Below are positions 52,685 through 58,967 of a DNA stretch of 64,000 nt, one piece after another. A model generated the notes under the pieces. That model did no database searches. It was not told the origin of the DNA and saw nothing but the letters and a program-made list of their open reading frames with translations. The translations under genes were made by a program, and so were the position numbers. The stretch comes from Burkholderia sp. USMB20 (GTDB taxonomy: Bacteria > Pseudomonadota > Gammaproteobacteria > Burkholderiales > Burkholderiaceae): the NCBI RefSeq assembly GCF_000949135.2, contig NZ_JTAN02000015.1, positions 115,688 through 179,687 on the forward strand, read 5' to 3'. Positions within the stretch are counted from its first letter, which is position 1. Every line of letters begins with the position of its first letter.

Positions 52685-54277
52685 GTGCTTTCTACTGCCA
52701 ACATCACGATGCAATTCGGGCCGAAGCCCTTGTTCGAGAATATCTCGGTCAAATTCGGCGAGGGCAACCGCTATGGTCTGATCGGCGCGAACGGCTGCGG
52801 CAAGTCGACCTTCATGAAGATCCTGGGCGGCGACCTCGAGCCGAGCGCCGGCAACGTCGCGCTGGAGCCGAACGTGCGCCTGGGCAAGCTGCGCCAGGAC
52901 CAGTTCGCGTACGAAGACGTGCGCGTGCTCGACGTCGTGATGATGGGCCACACCGAAATGTGGGCCGCGATGACCGAGCGCGACGCGATCTACGCGAACC
53001 CGGAAGCTACCGACGACGACTACATGCACGCGGCCGAGCTCGAAGGCAAGTTCGCCGAATACGGCGGCTACGACGCCGAGGCGCGCGCGGGCGCGCTGCT
53101 GCTCGGCATCGGCATCGAGGAGAAGTTCCACAACGGCACGATGGCCGACGTCGCGCCGGGCTGGAAGCTGCGCGTGCTGCTCGCGCAGGCGCTGTTCTCG
53201 AAGCCGGACGTGCTGCTGCTCGACGAACCGACCAACAACCTGGACATCAACTCGATCCGTTGGCTCGAGCACACGCTCAACGAGTACAACTCGACGATGA
53301 TCATCATCTCGCACGATCGTCACTTCCTGAACTCGGTGTGCACGCACATGGCCGACATGGACTACGGCACGCTGAAGGTCTGGCCGGGCAACTACGACGA
53401 CTACATGCTCGCATCGGCACAGGCGCGCGAGCGCCAGGCCGCGGCGAACGCGCGCGCGAAGGAACGCGTGGCCGAGCTGCAGGACTTCGTGCGCCGCTTC
53501 TCGGCGAACAAGTCGAAGGCCCGCCAGGCAACGAGCCGCGCGAAGCAGATCGACAAGATCAAGATCGAGGAATTCAAGCCGTCGTCGCGTCAGAACCCGT
53601 TCATCCGCTTCGAGTTCGAGAAGAAGCTGCACAACGTCGCGGTGGTCGCCGAAGACATCACGAAGAAGTACGAGCGCACGATCTTCCAGAACTTCAACCT
53701 GTCGGTGCAGCCGGGCGAGCGCATCGCGATCATCGGCGAGAACGGCGCGGGCAAGACGACGCTGCTGCGTTCGCTGCTCGGCGCGCTGCAGCTCGATCAC
53801 GGCACGGTGAAGTGGTCGGAGAACGCGAACGTCGGCTACATGCCGCAGGATACGTACGAGGAGTTCCCGAACGACATCACGCTGATGGACTGGATCGACC
53901 AGTACCGCAAGGACGGCGACGACGAAACGATGGTGCGCGGCACGCTGGGCCGCCTGCTGTTCTCGTCGGACGACATCAAGAAGTCGGTGAAGGTGCTGTC
54001 GGGCGGCGAGAAGGGCCGCATGATCTGGGGCAAGCTGATGCTCGGCCGCCACAACGTGCTGCTGATGGACGAGCCGACCAACCACATGGACATGGAGTCG
54101 ATCGAGTCGCTGCAGATCGCGCTCGAGCAGTTCGAAGGCACGCTGATCTTCGTGTCGCACGACCGCGAATTCGTGAGCGGGCTGGCGAACCGGATCATCG
54201 AAGTGCGCACGGACGGCACGCTGTTCGACTTCGGCGGGAATTACGAGGAGTTCCTGACGAGTCAGGGGCAGGAGTAA
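52685..54277 (+). CDS. ybiT: ABC-F family ATPase YbiT
   Basis: Ribosome-associated ABC-F protein of 530 residues with two nucleotide-binding domains. P-loops are GANGCGKST and GENGAGKTT. The linker [16 protein letters not shown] matches the YbiT branch closely. The first signature is the divergent VAPGWK also seen in E. coli YbiT; the second is LSGGEKGR. The start is GTG 52685. The last 125 bases are duplicated at 58843-58967, because an island is inserted at this 3' end. The gene here is intact. Confidence 0.94.
54153..54277 (+). repeat. Left copy of 125-bp direct repeat (attL-like), end of ybiT
   Basis: Identical over 125 bases to 58843-58967, ending exactly with the ybiT stop codon. This copy forms the 3' end of the intact gene. 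Sequence identity stops immediately outside on both sides. Confidence 0.95.
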
Positions 54278-54288
54278 AAACCGGCGGT

Positions 54289-54349
54289 TTGTCCCAAGAC
54301 CACCCTTCATGTGTCCCGGATTGTCCCACGGAATTGTCCCATTGGGACA
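54289..54349. other. Cluster of TGTCCCA repeats next to attL
   Basis: TTGTCCCA at 54289-54296, TGTCCC at 54312-54317, TTGTCCCA at 54321-54328 and 54334-54341, then the inverted TGGGACA at 54343-54349. Spacings of 9-13 bases between the inner copies approximate a helical turn. This is the sort of arm-site array expected beside the attachment site of a tyrosine recombinase. The function is inference. Confidence 0.55.
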
Positions 54350-54410
54350 GCGTGGTGCTTCTCTCTAGAGGACACTAGGCGGGACGCGTAGGTGCTCGCT
54401 AGAAACACGG

Positions 54411-54450
54411 AAGGCCCACATCGACAGTCTGTCGATGCGGGCCTTTTTCT
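54411..54450 (+). terminator. Terminator-like hairpin after ybiT, inside the island
   Basis: AAGGCCC-A-CATCGACA and TGTCGATG-C-GGGCCTT form a long stem closing on a short loop, followed by TTTCT. It would end ybiT transcription in place of the host terminator at 59003-59035, now displaced. The other 150 bases to the nuclease gene hold nothing recognisable. Confidence 0.8.
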
Positions 54451-54631
54451 ATTGATCTTCGCGATGGCAACTCAAGGCCTGCAAGCACGCACCGCCTCGA
54501 ACGCCCGGGCGCACGACACGAAGCAGCAGTTTTTTGCCTCGGACTCTAACTGCAGTTCGGACTAAAACCGGGGCAGGTCAGGTCGGGCATATTCCACGGT
54601 TGGAACGGTTGGAGTCTCGTCTGCAATGTTG

Positions 54632-56101
54632 CTAGTTGTCGACTCCTTTTACGGAGAAATTCATCTGGTCGTCAAAGAACCCATATAAGCAATTGACGTT
54701 CGGAAAATTTTTCTCCATCTCGCGAGTGTCGCCGAACCGACTATCAAGAATCTTTGAGCGTGGCTTCATTTCCGTAAAGATGATTGTTGCAGAGTCGACA
54801 TCTCTCGACTCAACAGCCCTGCTGCATTTGATCAAATCATACGCGTGAGAGTGGAATTCCCCGGTTGAGATGTGTAATCCCCTATTTGCGGATTGATTCT
54901 TAAAGCGATAGGCGGGCCAAATATTTGTATTGACTTCGATCCATTCGTCAACTCTTTTCTGTCGGACAACCCATTCATCAATGCTGTTTTTCATCTTTGC
55001 TAAATCGCCGTCAGAGGCGACGTACATAGTCACTTGGCGCGCCTTTTCTCTGGCATGAATGGTATTTAATAGTTCTAATGTTTGGGAAATTGCTTGTCTA
55101 TCGAGGGCCGATGCAAGCTGGGCGTCAAATGTTATGTTTTTCCATAGGGAGTTTATAATATCGCTCTTGAAGGTGGAATTCTCGATATCTTTCACTTCCT
55201 TGATTGATGATTTGTCAATCGGGGTGTGGAGTGCTTTGCTCGCCATTTCAAGAAATTGATCGACCGTGTACATCCAAAACATCTTGACGCTAGATAGCCT
55301 GCATATTTCTTGTGTAAGTTCTGGTAATGGCCCCAGGGTTTGGCCAAGTTTGCGCGCCCACCAATCTTCTTTTCTGTCGCCAGTTACAAAGACTAAGTTC
55401 TTGATGTCTTGGTTATTGGCGTGCTGAATTATTTGGCGCCATATAATTAAGTCGCCGTATTCGGCGGTGTATTCTATGCCGTCGTGAATGTATTTTGCTT
55501 CATTTGGATTTTTCGATTTGCCGTGGTCTAAGAAGCCAGGGGGGATTCTTTTTTCATATCGTGCGGCTGCGTCATCTAGAGACTTATCTAGCTCTGCTTG
55601 ACTTTCTGGGGGCGCTCCGATGTTGCTACCTAGTATTTTCTCTAAGCGGTTGCGGACCGCATCGTCATGGTTGATAGATAATTGATTTTTTCTGGCTTTG
55701 TCTACGGATTCCCGAATCTTTGATATTGCGTCTTTTAATGCGGTCGTCAAGGGGGAAGGGTCGATGCCCAGTCCTCGCTTCCCTAACTCCAGTCGTGCAA
55801 CAGCTTGGTCAAGTTCGGCTTCGGCTTTTTCGAGTTGCTTTACAGTGGAGTCGAATTTTTCATTTTCTTCTAGAATTACCCCGACTCGATTTCTTTGATA
55901 CTCGAGAGCGACATGAAATGGTATCCATAAGCGGCCAGCGAGTTTTTCCAGAACAGTGAAAAGATCGTCGCGCGCCTGCTGGGGAAACTTATACAAATTC
56001 AAAAGCACATTGGTGTCGACGATAAATGTCGCATCTCGCCAAATTGATTCTAAATTATCTTTGGTGGGTTGGTAGTAACCTGGGAACTGGTCTCTTAGCA
56101 C
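54632..56101 (-). CDS. PIN-like-domain protein (DUF4935/PIN_8 type), predicted RNase
   Basis: A 489-residue protein from GTG 56101, with GAGGT upstream as ribosome site. The N-terminal half is a PIN-like domain: Asp29 in FIVDTNVLLN, Glu67 in HVALEYQ, Asp217 in YGDLIIW and Asp242 in FVTGDRKEDWW. A charged coiled coil (about residues 78-145) is inserted between the acidic residues, as in PIN_8 proteins. The C-terminal 200 residues have no family I recognise. PIN domains cut single-stranded RNA with metal ions. The gene is AT-rich relative to the chromosome, so it is probably foreign. Expected role: defence or toxin nuclease (inference). Confidence 0.85.
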   Translation of the reverse strand: MLRDQFPGYYQPTKDNLESIWRDATFIVDTNVLLNLYKFPQQARDDLFTVLEKLAGRLWIPFHVALEYQRNRVGVILEENEKFDSTVKQLEKAEAELDQAVARLELGKRGLGIDPSPLTTALKDAISKIRESVDKARKNQLSINHDDAVRNRLEKILGSNIGAPPESQAELDKSLDDAAARYEKRIPPGFLDHGKSKNPNEAKYIHDGIEYTAEYGDLIIWRQIIQHANNQDIKNLVFVTGDRKEDWWARKLGQTLGPLPELTQEICRLSSVKMFWMYTVDQFLEMASKALHTPIDKSSIKEVKDIENSTFKSDIINSLWKNITFDAQLASALDRQAISQTLELLNTIHAREKARQVTMYVASDGDLAKMKNSIDEWVVRQKRVDEWIEVNTNIWPAYRFKNQSANRGLHISTGEFHSHAYDLIKCSRAVESRDVDSATIIFTEMKPRSKILDSRFGDTREMEKNFPNVNCLYGFFDDQMNFSVKGVDN

Positions 56102-56208
56102 GCTTTACCTCGTTCATATTTGAATGCCTATCACCCGTACGCTTCTAGCAGCCTAAGCTCCGCCACCTGCTCGCCGCAACGCCAACTGTAACCGGGTAGT
56201 ATCAGCGC

Positions 56209-56228
56209 GGCGAAGGAAAACCTTCGCC
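56209..56228 (-). terminator. Tight hairpin after the HEPN-like gene
   Basis: GGCGAAGG-AAAA-CCTTCGCC, a perfect 8-bp stem 12 bases past the HEPN-like stop on the minus strand. No T tract follows, so it may be an attenuator or processing site between the HEPN-like and PIN-like genes. Confidence 0.45.
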
Positions 56229-56239
56229 GTCACCTGCGC

Positions 56240-56752
56240 CTACGCTGCCAGCCGGGACAGACGCTCTGCATCTTCGAAGAGAGGGCCGAACGTTCTGCGT
56301 AGGCGAGGATGCAAAGGCAGGCATGCGAGCAGAACCGCGAGGGCGGCTTTCACCAGTTTTTCATTGCGATCCCTGCGTTCATCGTCCGGTATCCAATATT
56401 TGCCCCCGTGGAAAAGGTTATTTCTCACTCTCCGTACCATTAGGAGGGCTTGGGCCGAGGCGCGAAGCGCACCATCAGGCGGGGATTCTTTCCAGACAAC
56501 CCTTTGATCGATAAACACTTGCTTGCGGGGCGGATATGTCACGAGATAGTTGACAGCCTCGCGAAATCCGGCATCGTCTACCTTGTCAAATTCGTCCGCG
56601 ATACTTCGGGAAAATTCGTCCCAGTCCGGGTCTACCTTATTTTCGTTTCCTTTAGCGAAACCGGAATTCTTCAACGCATATTCATAACGCGAGAAAATAC
56701 CTGTAAAACCGATCACCAGCTCCGAATTTATTGGTGGTAACTGTTCAAACAT
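56240..56752 (-). CDS. HEPN-like protein, predicted RNase or its regulator
   Basis: A 170-residue helical protein starting at ATG 56752 (MFEQLPPINSELVIGF), with GAGG seven bases before. The key feature is MVRRVRNNLFHGGKYW, an R-x4-H motif of the HEPN superfamily, on a helix after FSRYEYALKNSGF. HEPN proteins are common RNA-cutting effectors in toxin-antitoxin, CRISPR and abortive-infection systems; some members are non-cutting. The frame is open upstream and joins the SRAP remnant, so a fusion protein cannot be excluded. It lies in tandem with the PIN-like gene, 138 bases before it. Confidence 0.75.
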   Translation of the reverse strand: MFEQLPPINSELVIGFTGIFSRYEYALKNSGFAKGNENKVDPDWDEFSRSIADEFDKVDDAGFREAVNYLVTYPPRKQVFIDQRVVWKESPPDGALRASAQALLMVRRVRNNLFHGGKYWIPDDERRDRNEKLVKAALAVLLACLPLHPRLRRTFGPLFEDAERLSRLAA

Positions 56753-56779
56753 ATATTGGCCTCGTCCCCGCGGTTTTAG

Positions 56780-57480
56780 TCGTGACGCAAATACTACCAT
56801 CGCAAGCTCTCGAGAGCTTGCTGATTCAGTGGCCATATCCTCGGCGGGATAAAGCCGGAGCATCGTCCGGGCCGCCTCAACGTTCTTCGTGTGCAGCCAC
56901 TCGTCGTAGTCCTCCGGCCGCAAGATCACGACGGAACGCTTCTCGTCGTTCGGCTTGTGCATGCGGGGCATAACTGGATGCCCGTCTGCGTTGACGGTCA
57001 GCATGGACATACCAATCCGCGACCGGCCGTCCTGATCCTCATAGCGCCTCCAGATGCCCGCCACGCAGTACGGCCGCCAGTCCTCAAGGCCGATCCTCTG
57101 CCACACGGTTCTTGCTAGGTTCGCAACTCGGTTCGTATATCCACTGAGCCGGGATCAAGCATCGTTGCCCTTCTCGCCAAGCCTTGCTGTACAGCCGGGA
57201 CTCTCCGACCGTCTCCGTACGAGCGTTTACAGTGTCCGGCTTGCGATTTTCCTCCCGTTCTCGTCCACACGCTCTGGCTGCATAAACTTCGGCCAGAAGC
57301 CAAACACCGCCTTGACTACTTCCAGACGGTCTCCGGCTGCGTAGCCGATCGAGCGCTGTAGTCCCGGTACACGTCCAAGTCCCAAGGAGCACGGTGGAAC
57401 AGGTCGCCGATGCCTACCTTTAGCTCACTGATACCTGAATCCGCGCCCGGTGCCTTGAAATTAGTGCACATGCCGCTTCC
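56780..57480 (-). pseudogene. SRAP-type (YedK/HMCES-like) protein gene with three frame breaks
   Basis: SRAP proteins crosslink to abasic sites in single-stranded DNA through Cys2. The gene starts MCTNFKAPGADSG at 57480 with Cys2 present. It then changes frame after VYRDY (near 57368) to IGYAAGDRLEVVKAVFGFWP. It changes again near 57240 to NARTETVGESRLYSKAW with the conserved Asn, Arg and Glu, and a third time near 57118 to RIGLEDWRPYCVAGIWRRYE. The His-containing PVMPRMHKP and WLHTKNVEAARTML end the domain. All catalytic residues survive across the frames, so decay is recent or due to read errors. Confidence 0.8.
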
Positions 57481-57766
57481 CGTTTCTCGCAACTGTCTCA
57501 CTGATAGTAATTGGACGAGACCTGTTGTTCTGCCAGCAGTAGCCTACTCGATCGTGCGTCGCTGGTAACGGCGCGGTGCGGCACCATCGAGGCGCGGGGC
57601 TCGACTGGTTCGGAACTTGAAGCGGATTACTACGAACTCACCCAGACCGTTGCGGGAGAGCCACGCCGAAGAAAATTAATTTATTGACTTTCCGCTGAGA
57701 GATTCTTCCGGAATTGGTATTCCGAGATGTATATCTGTGTATAAGAATGAAGATGTGTGAAAGGTA

Positions 57767-57838
57767 GTGATAACACCGTGCTGACAAGTTGCTAAGGAGT
57801 TTTTAACAAGCCAACTTGTTGCACAGTACTGGTATCAC
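57767..57838. repeat. Long imperfect inverted repeat
   Basis: GTGATAAC...ACAAGTTG (57767-57791) faces CAACTTGT...GGTATCAC (57812-57838). The inner 8 bp are perfect, and the outer part matches with gaps, around a 20-base loop containing GGAGTTTTT. It may be an att- or transcription-related structure. The bases from 57481 to 57766 hold no gene I recognise. Confidence 0.6.
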
Positions 57839-57857
57839 TCACTGCAAAAAGACTGTG

Positions 57858-57886
57858 TTGGACGCGGGGAAAAGGTGCGTTAGGAT
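57858..57886 (+). promoter_or_regulatory. Candidate sigma-70-type promoter for the short ORF
   Basis: TTGGAC, a 17-base spacer, then TAGGAT. A start of transcription near 57893 would give a leader of about 92 bases to the ATG at 57985. The leader contains two hairpins: CAAGGTC/GGCCTTG (57895-57912) and AGGGCGAGCTAC/GTAGCCCGCCCT (57922-57964, one mismatch). Confidence 0.5.
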
Positions 57887-57984
57887 TGTGTCTGCAAGGT
57901 CAGCCGGCCTTGTAAAACAAGAGGGCGAGCTACCTGTGGCCTGGAAACCGAAGTAGCCCGCCCTACACGCAAACAGGCAATCAA

Positions 57985-58065
57985 ATGAAACCTGATCCTG
58001 CAACCCTTTACTGGGTTCTCGCGGCAACCTACGCATTGATGGCGTTGATGCACGGTCATCCGTAG
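57985..58065 (+). CDS. 26-residue hydrophobic peptide ORF
   Basis: MKPDPATLYWVLAATYALMA then LMHGHP. One short hydrophobic helix (LYWVLAATYALMALM) with a charged start and a histidine end is the pattern of small membrane peptides, including type I toxins. It has a promoter-like sequence and a structured leader upstream. Hairpins lie downstream at 58075-58100 (TATCCTACA/TGTAGGATA) and 58129-58147 (GTCAACA/TGTTGAC). The ribosome site is weak (AGGCAA). I know no named family for it; the function is inference. Confidence 0.4.
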   Translation: MKPDPATLYWVLAATYALMALMHGHP

Positions 58066-58201
58066 AGGTCTTTGTATCCTACATATGTGTTTGTAGGATA
58101 AACTCAGTCTAGCACTTTAGGATTACCGGTCAACAGATATTGTTGACGCGACGGAGCGCTAGGCTCTTGATTAGTCACGCCCTGTGCGTGATGAGCCGGT
58201 G

Positions 58202-58227
58202 GCTGCCCCTTATTTCTAAGGGGCAGC
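58202..58227. terminator. Strong hairpin upstream of the hicB remnant
   Basis: GCTGCCCCTTA-TTTC-TAAGGGGCAGC is a perfect 11-bp stem with a 4-base loop, followed by TTATTCGC. It could terminate the short-ORF transcript. Confidence 0.55.
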
Positions 58228-58237
58228 TTATTCGCGC

Positions 58238-58383
58238 ATATTTCCTATAGCAACCCATAAGGACGATGGCACTGTCTACGGCGTGACTGTTCCCGATGTC
58301 CGGAGCGTTCACTCCTGGGGTGAGACCATGGACGAGACCATCGAAAACACTAGGACTGCAGACCCACGGCCCACTCATCTATA
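58238..58383 (+). pseudogene. Truncated HicB antitoxin gene
   Basis: The plus frame reads IFPIATHKDDGTVYGVTVPD then VRSVHSWGETMDETIENT, the N-terminal fold of HicB antitoxins (consensus: hydrophobic start, HKDDGxxYGVTVPD, GxTxxEAxxN). After ENT (about 58349) it loses similarity and runs to a stop at 58383 through antisense recombinase sequence. There is no ATG at the expected start (ATA instead) and no hicA upstream. The fragment ends where the recombinase remnant ends, so one deletion probably removed both 3' ends. Confidence 0.72.
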
Positions 58384-58801
58384 GCGAGACGGTACACGGC
58401 GGATATGGCATCTAGCTCCCGGATCACTGTTCTGGGCACAACCTCTCCGATACGATGATCCCGCCATTCGACCAAATGCGGCTTGTCCGGCTTCGCGGCT
58501 GGGACGGCGCATAGCTTCTTCGTTGCGGATGAAGCGGCGGCATATCCCTCGCTCCCATTCGACATTCCGGCGGCCGGCAAAGGTGCCTTGATGTACCGCG
58601 CAAAGAGGTCTCCCACAGTGAGCGTAGGGGAGGCTTCTCGCGGACCTTACGGGGCTGCTTGGGAGCTGGCTTGATTGCCTCTTGTTCGGCCGCCCACTGC
58701 TCCGCAGCCTCCCTCGTATCGAAAGTTTGGGAGCGGATCGGCTGGCCTTGGACCCGTATTTTGGCCTGCCATTTGTACCCACGTTGAACGATAGATGCCA
58801 T
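58350..58801 (-). pseudogene. Truncated tyrosine recombinase (integrase)
   Basis: It starts at ATG 58801 (MASIVQRGYKWQAKIRVQG), the arm-binding N-terminus of phage-type integrases. PIRSQTFDTREAAEQWAAEQ follows, then a frame change near 58610 continues it as MGDLFARYIK. Later VEWRDHRIGEVVPRTVIREL and ISAVYRLAIDEWAVGLQS match the core-binding domain. The sequence ends at 58350; the catalytic domain with its Arg-His-Arg-Tyr residues is absent. It lies 41 bases from the right repeat, the normal position for the integrase of such an element. Confidence 0.85.
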
Positions 58802-58842
58802 TCTGATCTCCAGAAAATTGCGGAAATCAGATTGGGTCTGGC

Positions 58843-58967
58843 TGTCGCACGACCGCGAATTCGTGAGCGGGCTGGCGAACCGGATCATCGAAGTGCGCAC
58901 GGACGGCACGCTGTTCGACTTCGGCGGGAATTACGAGGAGTTCCTGACGAGTCAGGGGCAGGAGTAA
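58843..58967 (+). repeat. Right copy of 125-bp direct repeat (attR-like)
   Basis: A 3' fragment of ybiT ([20 protein letters not shown] to the stop), identical to 54153-54277. It is followed by the native-looking ybiT terminator, so it is probably the original end of the host gene, displaced by the insertion. Confidence 0.95.

What the first reader, a model, noticed from the sequence alone, without database searches (positions are those of the whole stretch)
54632..56752. Candidate two-nuclease defence unit: PIN-like and HEPN-like genes in tandem
The HEPN-like gene (R-x4-H motif) and the PIN-like gene (Asp29, Glu67, Asp217, Asp242) are adjacent, co-directional, intact and on a mobile island whose other genes have decayed. 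Both folds usually cut RNA. Retention of just these two suggests selection, as in abortive-infection or toxin-antitoxin pairs. One may neutralise the other, as HEPN modules are often paired with a second protein. I know no named system with exactly this pair.
Basis: partly seen in the sequence, partly recalled or inferred. Interest (0 to 1): 0.8.

Follow-up and report, generated by a model that had tools for sequence, protein, structure and literature searches.

The report
Two RNA-cutter genes in prophage remnant
Two intact genes that look like RNA-cutting antiviral enzymes survive side by side in a decayed mobile element, but in the relatives examined each almost always occurs without the other, so they look like two separate cargo genes rather than a new two-part system.

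Summary
A decayed integrated element, bounded by a perfect 125-bp direct repeat at the 3' end of an ABC-F gene, carries an intact PIN_8 nuclease gene (54632-56101, minus) and an intact HEPN-like gene (56240-56752, minus) beside a broken SRAP gene and a truncated integrase. Catalytic residues are in place; both genes show purifying selection (dN/dS 0.12 and 0.17). The "two-nuclease unit" does not hold as a general system. Of 80 viral-contig PIN_8 loci, one has the HEPN family; of 112 HEPN-family loci, one has adjacent PIN_8; both are the same contig, a prophage-like sister with the colinear cassette SRAP-HEPN-PIN. The two genes differ in G+C and in synonymous divergence from that sister (dS 0.60 PIN, 1.37 HEPN). 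Elsewhere the HEPN family has varied neighbours (Gabija, AbiJ-like, Abi_C, type I restriction, a P4-like satellite). Most likely these are two separately acquired abortive-infection RNases kept as cargo; RNase and antiphage function are inferred. The more novel part is the HEPN family itself: no Pfam match for the window protein even at E 0.1, yet at least 262 genome loci encode a relative.

The parts
54153..54277 (.). attL-like copy of a 125-bp perfect direct repeat; also the 3' end of the resident ABC-F gene (52685-54277, +; ABC-F is my reading of the translation)
   Evidence: the repeat finder D1, 100%; same sequence beside an integrase in G056 (99.2%) and G017 (84.9%)
54632..56101 (-). PIN_8 nuclease gene, 489 aa, GTG start; D29, E67, D217, D242 present; long helices at 62-104 and 116-139 between the two halves of the PIN domain; poorly conserved C-terminal part from about residue 301
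   Evidence: Pfam PIN_8 3.3e-60; phrog_9788; alignments; model with high confidence to about residue 310; dN/dS 0.117 against L097
56240..56752 (-). HEPN-like gene, 170 aa, ATG start; R110-x4-H115
   Evidence: motif kept in 18 of 18 relatives found without a motif search; phrog_19013 E 3.8e-30; AF2 model mean pLDDT 90.6; dN/dS 0.165
56790..57470 (-). broken SRAP (YedK-like) gene, matches split over two reading frames; its C-terminal piece is open into the HEPN frame. An intact 225-aa copy lies at the same place in L097
   Evidence: Pfam SRAP on two separate pieces; L097 ORF 5264-5941, phrog_1599; 82% identity over 690 aligned bases
57521..57599 (+). group II intron remnant between the SRAP and HicB-like remnants
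   Evidence: Rfam RF02012, 54 bits, E 1.9e-9; in a stretch not aligned with L097 at its 5' part (window 57471-57584)
58240..58350 (+). HicB-like antitoxin remnant (label from my own reading of the sequence, no family search)
   Evidence: part of window 57585-58350, 85% identical to L097 4146-3333, which overlaps an open 122-aa ORF
58359..58842 (-). truncated tyrosine-integrase remnant (family name from my reading)
   Evidence: 91% and 87% identity to stretches with open integrases in L217 and L218; stops in all three frames
58843..58967 (.). attR-like copy of the 125-bp direct repeat

Best explanation
The two genes are leftover cargo of a degraded prophage or integrative element that used the 3' end of an ABC-F gene as its attachment site. 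They are two separately acquired, separately acting antiviral RNases, not one fixed two-component system. The PIN_8 protein most likely works alone: an N-terminal PIN active site (D29, E67, D217, D242) interrupted by a long helical insertion is kept silent, the poorly conserved C-terminal part reads a sign of infection by a competing phage, and the released nuclease cuts host or phage RNA, arresting growth. The HEPN-like protein most likely acts as a small dimeric metal-independent RNase (R110/H115), alone or together with whatever defence gene it lies beside. Shown here: gene integrity, conserved residues, purifying selection, mobility, and lack of conserved pairing in the loci examined. Inferred: RNA as substrate, auto-inhibition, the sensor role of the C-terminal part, dimerisation, and antiphage function.
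For: No HEPN-family hit in 79 of 80 viral-contig PIN_8 loci, and no adjacent PIN_8 in 111 of 112 HEPN loci (some cut short). HEPN neighbours vary: GajB model in L002; Abi_C in L007 and L033, AbiJ_NTD4 in L034, HepT-like in L084, type I R subunit in L041; an annotated DEAD/DEAH helicase and HamA-domain gene (Hachiman is my label) in an E. coli element with phage polarity suppression and ogr genes; a slot after a tail-fibre assembly gene in an E. coli prophage. Different G+C: PIN 0.448, HEPN 0.519, SRAP remnant 0.593. Different divergence from the sister: HEPN dS 1.37, PIN dS 0.60 (Fisher p about 3e-5 on rounded counts with an assumed quarter of sites synonymous). PIN residues 1-305 evolve at dN/dS 0.03-0.06. 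Median identity to the window protein across 73 relatives is 0.40 at 1-95 and 161-250, 0.36 at 251-300 and 0.21 in the insertion 96-160, but 0.10 and 0.09 at 301-415 and 416-489. [quoted passage not shown]
Against: The sister L097 keeps HEPN and PIN adjacent (115-bp gap) although the HEPN has diverged to 67% identity, which could mean a maintained pair. HEPN and PIN residues 306-415 (58% identity) both diverge far more than the rest of the PIN gene, as co-adapting partners might. PIN_8 may have other partners: 22 of 80 PIN genes have a same-strand ORF within 100 bp upstream and 12 within 100 bp downstream, not examined further. The PIN protein has no match in 50,697 deposited phage records, so a phage role rests on IMG/VR contigs. 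No phage-protection or RNase data exist for these proteins, and homology to DS-3 could not be tested. The HEPN neighbour lists have no background control and include genes that are not defence genes (T2SSF in L054; RNase_E_G, Pyrophosphatase).
Confidence: 0.6

Rival explanations
1. A real but narrowly distributed two-gene HEPN-PIN system of one prophage lineage: one protein senses or restrains, the other cuts RNA.
For: Colinear in the window and in L097; both genes intact and constrained while SRAP and integrase are broken; HEPN and PIN 306-415 both fast-diverging.
Against: Only one sister found; no HEPN in the short stretch held around the closest other full-length PIN relative (L130, 44%) or in 79 of 80 viral PIN_8 loci; 138-bp gap, different G+C and dS.
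Confidence: 0.2
2. Three-gene cargo SRAP-HEPN-PIN: in intact elements SRAP belongs to the same stress or defence unit, and the window copy is a damaged version.
For: SRAP is intact and directly upstream of HEPN in L097; one of 42 downstream neighbours of other HEPN genes is an SRAP.
Against: DNA like the SRAP stretch is common in the genus (53 of 65 genomes by my count of the places), while the HEPN family is in 0 of 65. The upstream tally prints only the first 25 of 102 families, so SRAP there could not be counted.
Confidence: 0.07
3. Decaying cargo with no present function; the ORFs simply have not broken yet.
For: SRAP, the integrase and the HicB-like gene in the same remnant are damaged.
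Against: PIN residues 1-305 have dN about 0.02 against dS about 0.57, leaving little room for a long neutral period.
Confidence: 0.13

Closest known systems
PIN_8 / PIN_12 families (PF18476, PF16289); phrog_9788
   Same: N-terminal domain matches above Pfam cut-offs; four acidic residues kept; relatives on viral contigs and plasmids
   Different: C-terminal part from about residue 301 poorly conserved; function unassigned in PHROGs
DefensePredictor DS-3 (one-protein split-PIN antiphage system, PMC13092281, passages read)
   Same: PIN domain interrupted by an insertion; no dedicated antitoxin seen
   Different: Sequence relationship not tested (DS-3 sequence not in the text read); the window gene has a HEPN-like neighbour
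HEPN superfamily (Anantharaman et al. 2013, PMC3710099, passages read)
   Same: R-x4-H motif, polar residue after R, conserved upstream Glu, mostly helical model, found beside restriction and Abi genes
   Different: No curated Pfam model hits the window protein; the family corresponds to phrog_19013. Identity with the paper's Bxe_C0808 family could not be tested
Eukaryotic Swt1 (PIN and HEPN domains in one protein; PMC3710099, passages read)
   Same: Combines a PIN and a HEPN domain
   Different: One polypeptide, HEPN thought inactive; the weak HEPN_Swt1 match is 1 of 82 at E 0.076

Membership tests
PIN_8 nuclease family | Pfam PF18476 match above curated cut-off | tested here: met
   204.3 bits, cut-off 26.1
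PIN_8 nuclease family | Four acidic active-site residues | tested here: met
   present in the window; D29, E67, D217 in 9 of 9 relatives found without pattern search, 242 D in 6 and E in 3; alignment of 74 agrees, partly by construction
PIN_8 nuclease family | RNase activity | not testable with these tools
   needs biochemistry
HEPN superfamily | Rx4-6H motif with polar residue after R | tested here: met
   R110-N-N-L-F-H115 in the window; R-x4-H in 18 of 18 relatives found without motif search, N after R in 17 and H in 1
HEPN superfamily | Conserved acidic residue upstream of the motif | tested here: met
   E24 in 82 of 82, in the first long predicted helix
HEPN superfamily | Match to a curated HEPN profile | tested here: inconclusive
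   none for the window protein; HEPN_Apea in 2 of 82 relatives, best E 3.3e-4
HEPN superfamily | HEPN helical-bundle fold | tested here: inconclusive
   mainly helical model, pLDDT 90.6; Foldseek found nothing at E 0.001, but it also showed no PIN structure among the 50 rows printed for the Pfam-certain PIN protein, so the negative says little; the second aligner was unavailable
Conserved two-gene HEPN-PIN system | Adjacency in independent loci | tested here: not met
   1 of 80 and 1 of 112 loci, the same contig; some loci cut short
Type II toxin-antitoxin module | Overlapping or closely coupled genes | tested here: not met
   138-bp gap in the window (54632-56101 and 56240-56752), 115 bp in L097
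Type II toxin-antitoxin module | One protein neutralises the other | not testable with these tools
   needs co-expression assay
DS-3-like solitary split-PIN defence protein | PIN domain interrupted by an insertion | tested here: met
   predicted helices between the strand before D29 and the second half of the domain
DS-3-like solitary split-PIN defence protein | Acts as a single gene | tested here: inconclusive
   no HEPN family in 79 of 80 loci, but 22 and 12 of 80 have a close same-strand ORF up- or downstream
DS-3-like solitary split-PIN defence protein | Sequence homology to DS-3 | not testable with these tools
   DS-3 sequence not in the text read

The most novel reading that the evidence does not exclude
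The HEPN-like protein belongs to a widespread, uncurated family (phrog_19013) that acts as a plug-in effector: the same small RNase is placed beside many unrelated defence genes (Gabija, Argonaute-like, AbiJ, Abi_C, HepT, type I restriction, Hachiman, and here PIN_8). In this prophage lineage it has become the fast-evolving partner of a PIN_8 nuclease, its interface being PIN residues 306-415.
Probability: 0.15. Interest if true: 0.65.

Novelty: new member of a known kind. Interest (0 to 1): 0.33.

Why it matters
As a pair, little: it is a cargo block of two defence-type genes. It matters in showing that PIN_8 proteins found on viral contigs have a conserved nuclease half and a variable second half, the layout expected of a sensor-effector protein, and that a small HEPN-like family, without a Pfam match for this member and with only weak ones in 3 of 82, recurs in mobile DNA and next to known defence genes. 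If that family is an accessory effector, the published boundaries of several defence systems may need a further gene.

Tried and rejected
Two-component system as a general rule: rejected on co-occurrence (samples; E limits differ between the HEPN and PIN searches). In plasmids, 17 records hold the HEPN family and 65 hold PIN_8 (40 listed, 25 not seen); none of the 17 is among the 40. In deposited phages, 5 records hold the HEPN family and none PIN.

SRAP-HEPN fusion protein (ORF from 57106): rejected; the broken SRAP gene runs into the HEPN frame, and the sister has separate genes.

Structure matching: Foldseek on the HEPN model against PDB and BFVD, and on the PIN model against PDB, gave no match at E 0.001. 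The PIN model, a sure PIN protein by sequence, failed too, so nothing is concluded. Profile searches of solved structures found no plausible relative. hhalign of the HEPN profile with a two-sequence Abi_C alignment, and with the PIN profile, gave nothing.

Literature (held library only): PF18476, 0 papers; DUF4935, 1 (listing only); PIN_8, plant transporters in the 20 of 62 listed; PIN-like with phage defence, 1 (listing only); Bxe_C0808, 1; broader HEPN/PIN searches (listings). Passages were read in PMC13092281, PMC3710099, PMC9122126 and PMC13405049, plus part 1 of the reference section of PMC13092281. The type IX retron HEPN (PMC13405049) is said to lack the canonical motif, so I took it not to be this family. 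No claim is made that this pair or family is absent from print.

Integrase proximity of PIN_8 genes: 8 of 80 within 400 bp, against a mean of 0.037 of the large ORFs of the same loci, but the integrase profile was built from few sequences and found one in only 14 of 80 loci; used as a hint only. The promoter scan found 0 (2.5 expected in shuffles); uninformative.

Rows dropped before counts: the neighbour lists kept same-strand neighbours of at least 90 aa (gap up to 260 bp upstream, 200 bp downstream) without duplicates: 67 upstream, 42 downstream. HEPN alignment A6: 92 loci passed a coverage filter, 85 remained after removing identical ends, 4 (L074, L077, L101, L102) were left out by hand, giving 81 plus the window. 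PIN alignment A7: 74 of 80 loci passed a script filter, 73 plus the window were aligned. The 112 HEPN loci include near-duplicates (L034-L036; L125/L129, one place). The genome scan kept the best 80 of 262 confirmed HEPN relatives and the viral PIN scan 80 of 82. Of the HEPN loci with a 4-bp upstream overlap, five were scanned singly; L035 and L036 repeat L034, L093 was only in the pooled scan, and L097 is an artefact of an over-long ORF.

Full report
WHAT IS THERE. The window is Burkholderia-like DNA (the 5 plasmid records that match the island, all through one 80-nt repeat, are Burkholderia; the window's own assembly is not held). An ABC-F-like gene ends at 54277. Its last 125 bp recur, 100% identical, at 58843-58967, so 54278-58842 is an integrated element. 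Its integrase is a remnant (58359-58842, stops in all three frames). Open integrases of 329 and 333 aa lie beside the same attachment sequence in genomes G056 and G017; the ORFs near them are not those of the window's element. Inside lie, on the minus strand, PIN (54632-56101), the HEPN-like gene (56240-56752) and a broken SRAP gene whose matches fall in two frames, then a group II intron remnant (57521-57599, Rfam 54 bits) and a HicB-like remnant (my reading).

THE TWO GENES. The PIN protein matches PIN_8 at 3.3e-60. A model built on 74 sequences is confident up to about residue 310 and shows a strand ending before Asp29, a long helical insertion, then the rest of the domain; the C-terminal part is modelled with low confidence and is hardly conserved: median identity 0.10 and 0.09 beyond residue 301, against 0.40 at 1-95 and 161-250. 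The 170-aa protein has R110-x4-H115. In 82 aligned relatives E24, K28, W44, Q78, R110, N111, N112, L113, H115, G116 and K118 are invariant, but the scans that brought in most of them used the motif itself, so only the residues outside the patterns count freely there. A check on 18 loci found without those scans gives R-x4-H in 18 of 18. The model is confident and mainly helical. The HEPN assignment rests on the motif, the conserved Glu, the helices, and weak HEPN_Apea matches in 2 of 82 relatives; no Pfam family hits the window protein itself, nor did PADLOC or NCBIfam at E 1 (run on the longer ORF). Both proteins fall in PHROG families of unknown function (phrog_9788, phrog_19013).

THE SISTER. 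One viral contig (L097, also fetched as L116) holds the cassette with an open integrase-like ORF, a HicB-like ORF, an intact SRAP, HEPN, PIN, then HNH- and portal-like ORFs (my reading of the translations, apart from the family hits for SRAP and PIN). DNA identity is 0.82 in SRAP, 0.71 in HEPN, 0.90 in PIN 1-305, 0.72 in PIN 306-415 and 0.90 in PIN 416-489. dN/dS is 0.165 for HEPN and 0.117 for PIN (0.03-0.06 in residues 1-305, 0.32 in 306-415, 0.08 in 416-489). Both are therefore under purifying selection, but dS is 1.37 for HEPN and 0.60 for PIN: either recombination has brought different alleles side by side, or the rates differ. G+C also differs (0.448 PIN, 0.519 HEPN, 0.593 SRAP remnant).

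IS IT A UNIT? Examined were 80 viral PIN_8 loci (best 80 of 82 confirmed) and 112 HEPN loci: 80 from genomes (best 80 of 262), 19 viral, 6 from plasmids and 7 from the family sample. The HEPN profile hits 1 of 80 PIN loci. PIN_8 lies next to HEPN in 1 of 112; both are L097/L116. L064 has PIN_8 about 4.4 kb away, with ORFs of 1179 and 188 aa between. Not every locus is long enough to see a neighbour: 59 of 80 PIN loci and 97 of 112 HEPN loci have at least 1 kb on both sides. Further short loci from genome, phage and E. coli searches never hold both. In whole-genome samples HEPN and PIN_8 were found in 6 and 4 of 398 genomes, 4 and 3 of 369, and 0 and 4 of 65, at differing E limits, with no genome in common. 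Both are rare, so joint absence is weak evidence by itself. The closest other full-length PIN relative (L130, 44%) has no HEPN in the short stretch held.

WHERE THE FAMILIES LIVE. PIN_8 genes of 371-549 aa occur on IMG/VR contigs and in 65 plasmid records, but in none of 50,697 deposited phage records. The HEPN family lies directly downstream of, and overlaps by 4 bp with, genes carrying Abi_C (L007, L033), AbiJ_NTD4 (L034) or HepT-like (L084) domains; a fifth such gene scanned (L056) had no family (starts are those of the longest ORFs). It also lies beside a GajB match in L002, type I restriction genes, pAgo-model matches in 3 of 67 upstream neighbours, VapBC on a plasmid, and a helicase and HamA-domain gene in an E. 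coli element with P4-like genes, a kind of element described as carrying a defence hotspot (PMC9122126, passages). Not all neighbours are defence genes, and no background control was run. DNA like one E. coli member is in 38 of 5426 E. coli genomes.

MECHANISM. I favour two independent abortive-infection RNases. PIN: auto-inhibited until its variable C-terminal half meets a trigger; the precedent is DS-3, a one-protein split-PIN system needing its catalytic residues and lacking an antitoxin (PMC13092281, passages). HEPN: metal-independent cleavage, as proposed for Rx4-6H proteins (PMC3710099, passages), by a dimer, as stated for HEPN RNases (PMC13405049, passages). Substrate, trigger and antiphage effect are inferred for both. 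The main rival is a young, lineage-specific pair: supported by adjacency in the sister and by the shared fast divergence of HEPN and PIN 306-415, weakened by the rest.

NOVELTY. The pair is a new occurrence of known kinds. The uncurated HEPN family is the part that deserves follow-up.

Noticed in passing
window 57521-57599: Group II intron remnant (Rfam RF02012, 54 bits) between the SRAP and HicB-like remnants; window 57487-57592 also matches G048 (90%) and G036 (86%).
   Followed up: partly
window 54502-54582: An 80-nt repeat found at 88-96% identity in several related genomes and 5 plasmid records, in two of these under an annotated IS3 transposase.
   Followed up: no
window 54153-54277; L217, L218: The 3' end of the ABC-F gene is a recurrent attachment site: two related genomes hold related integrases there.
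   Followed up: partly
L007, L033, L034, L084: The HEPN family overlaps by 4 bp the 3' end of genes with Abi_C, AbiJ_NTD4 or HepT-like domains, suggesting translational coupling with other Abi-type effectors.
   Followed up: partly
L219 5057-5515: A HEPN-family gene lies between an integrase-domain gene and a helicase/HamA-domain gene pair in an E. coli element with P4-like genes.
   Followed up: no
window 54857-55186 (PIN residues 306-415): A segment inside the PIN gene is far more divergent from the sister (58% identity) than its flanks (93-96%).
   Followed up: partly
L006, L008, L009: C-terminal parts of some PIN_8 relatives look like PD-(D/E)XK-type domains by eye (motif recalled, not tested).
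   Followed up: no
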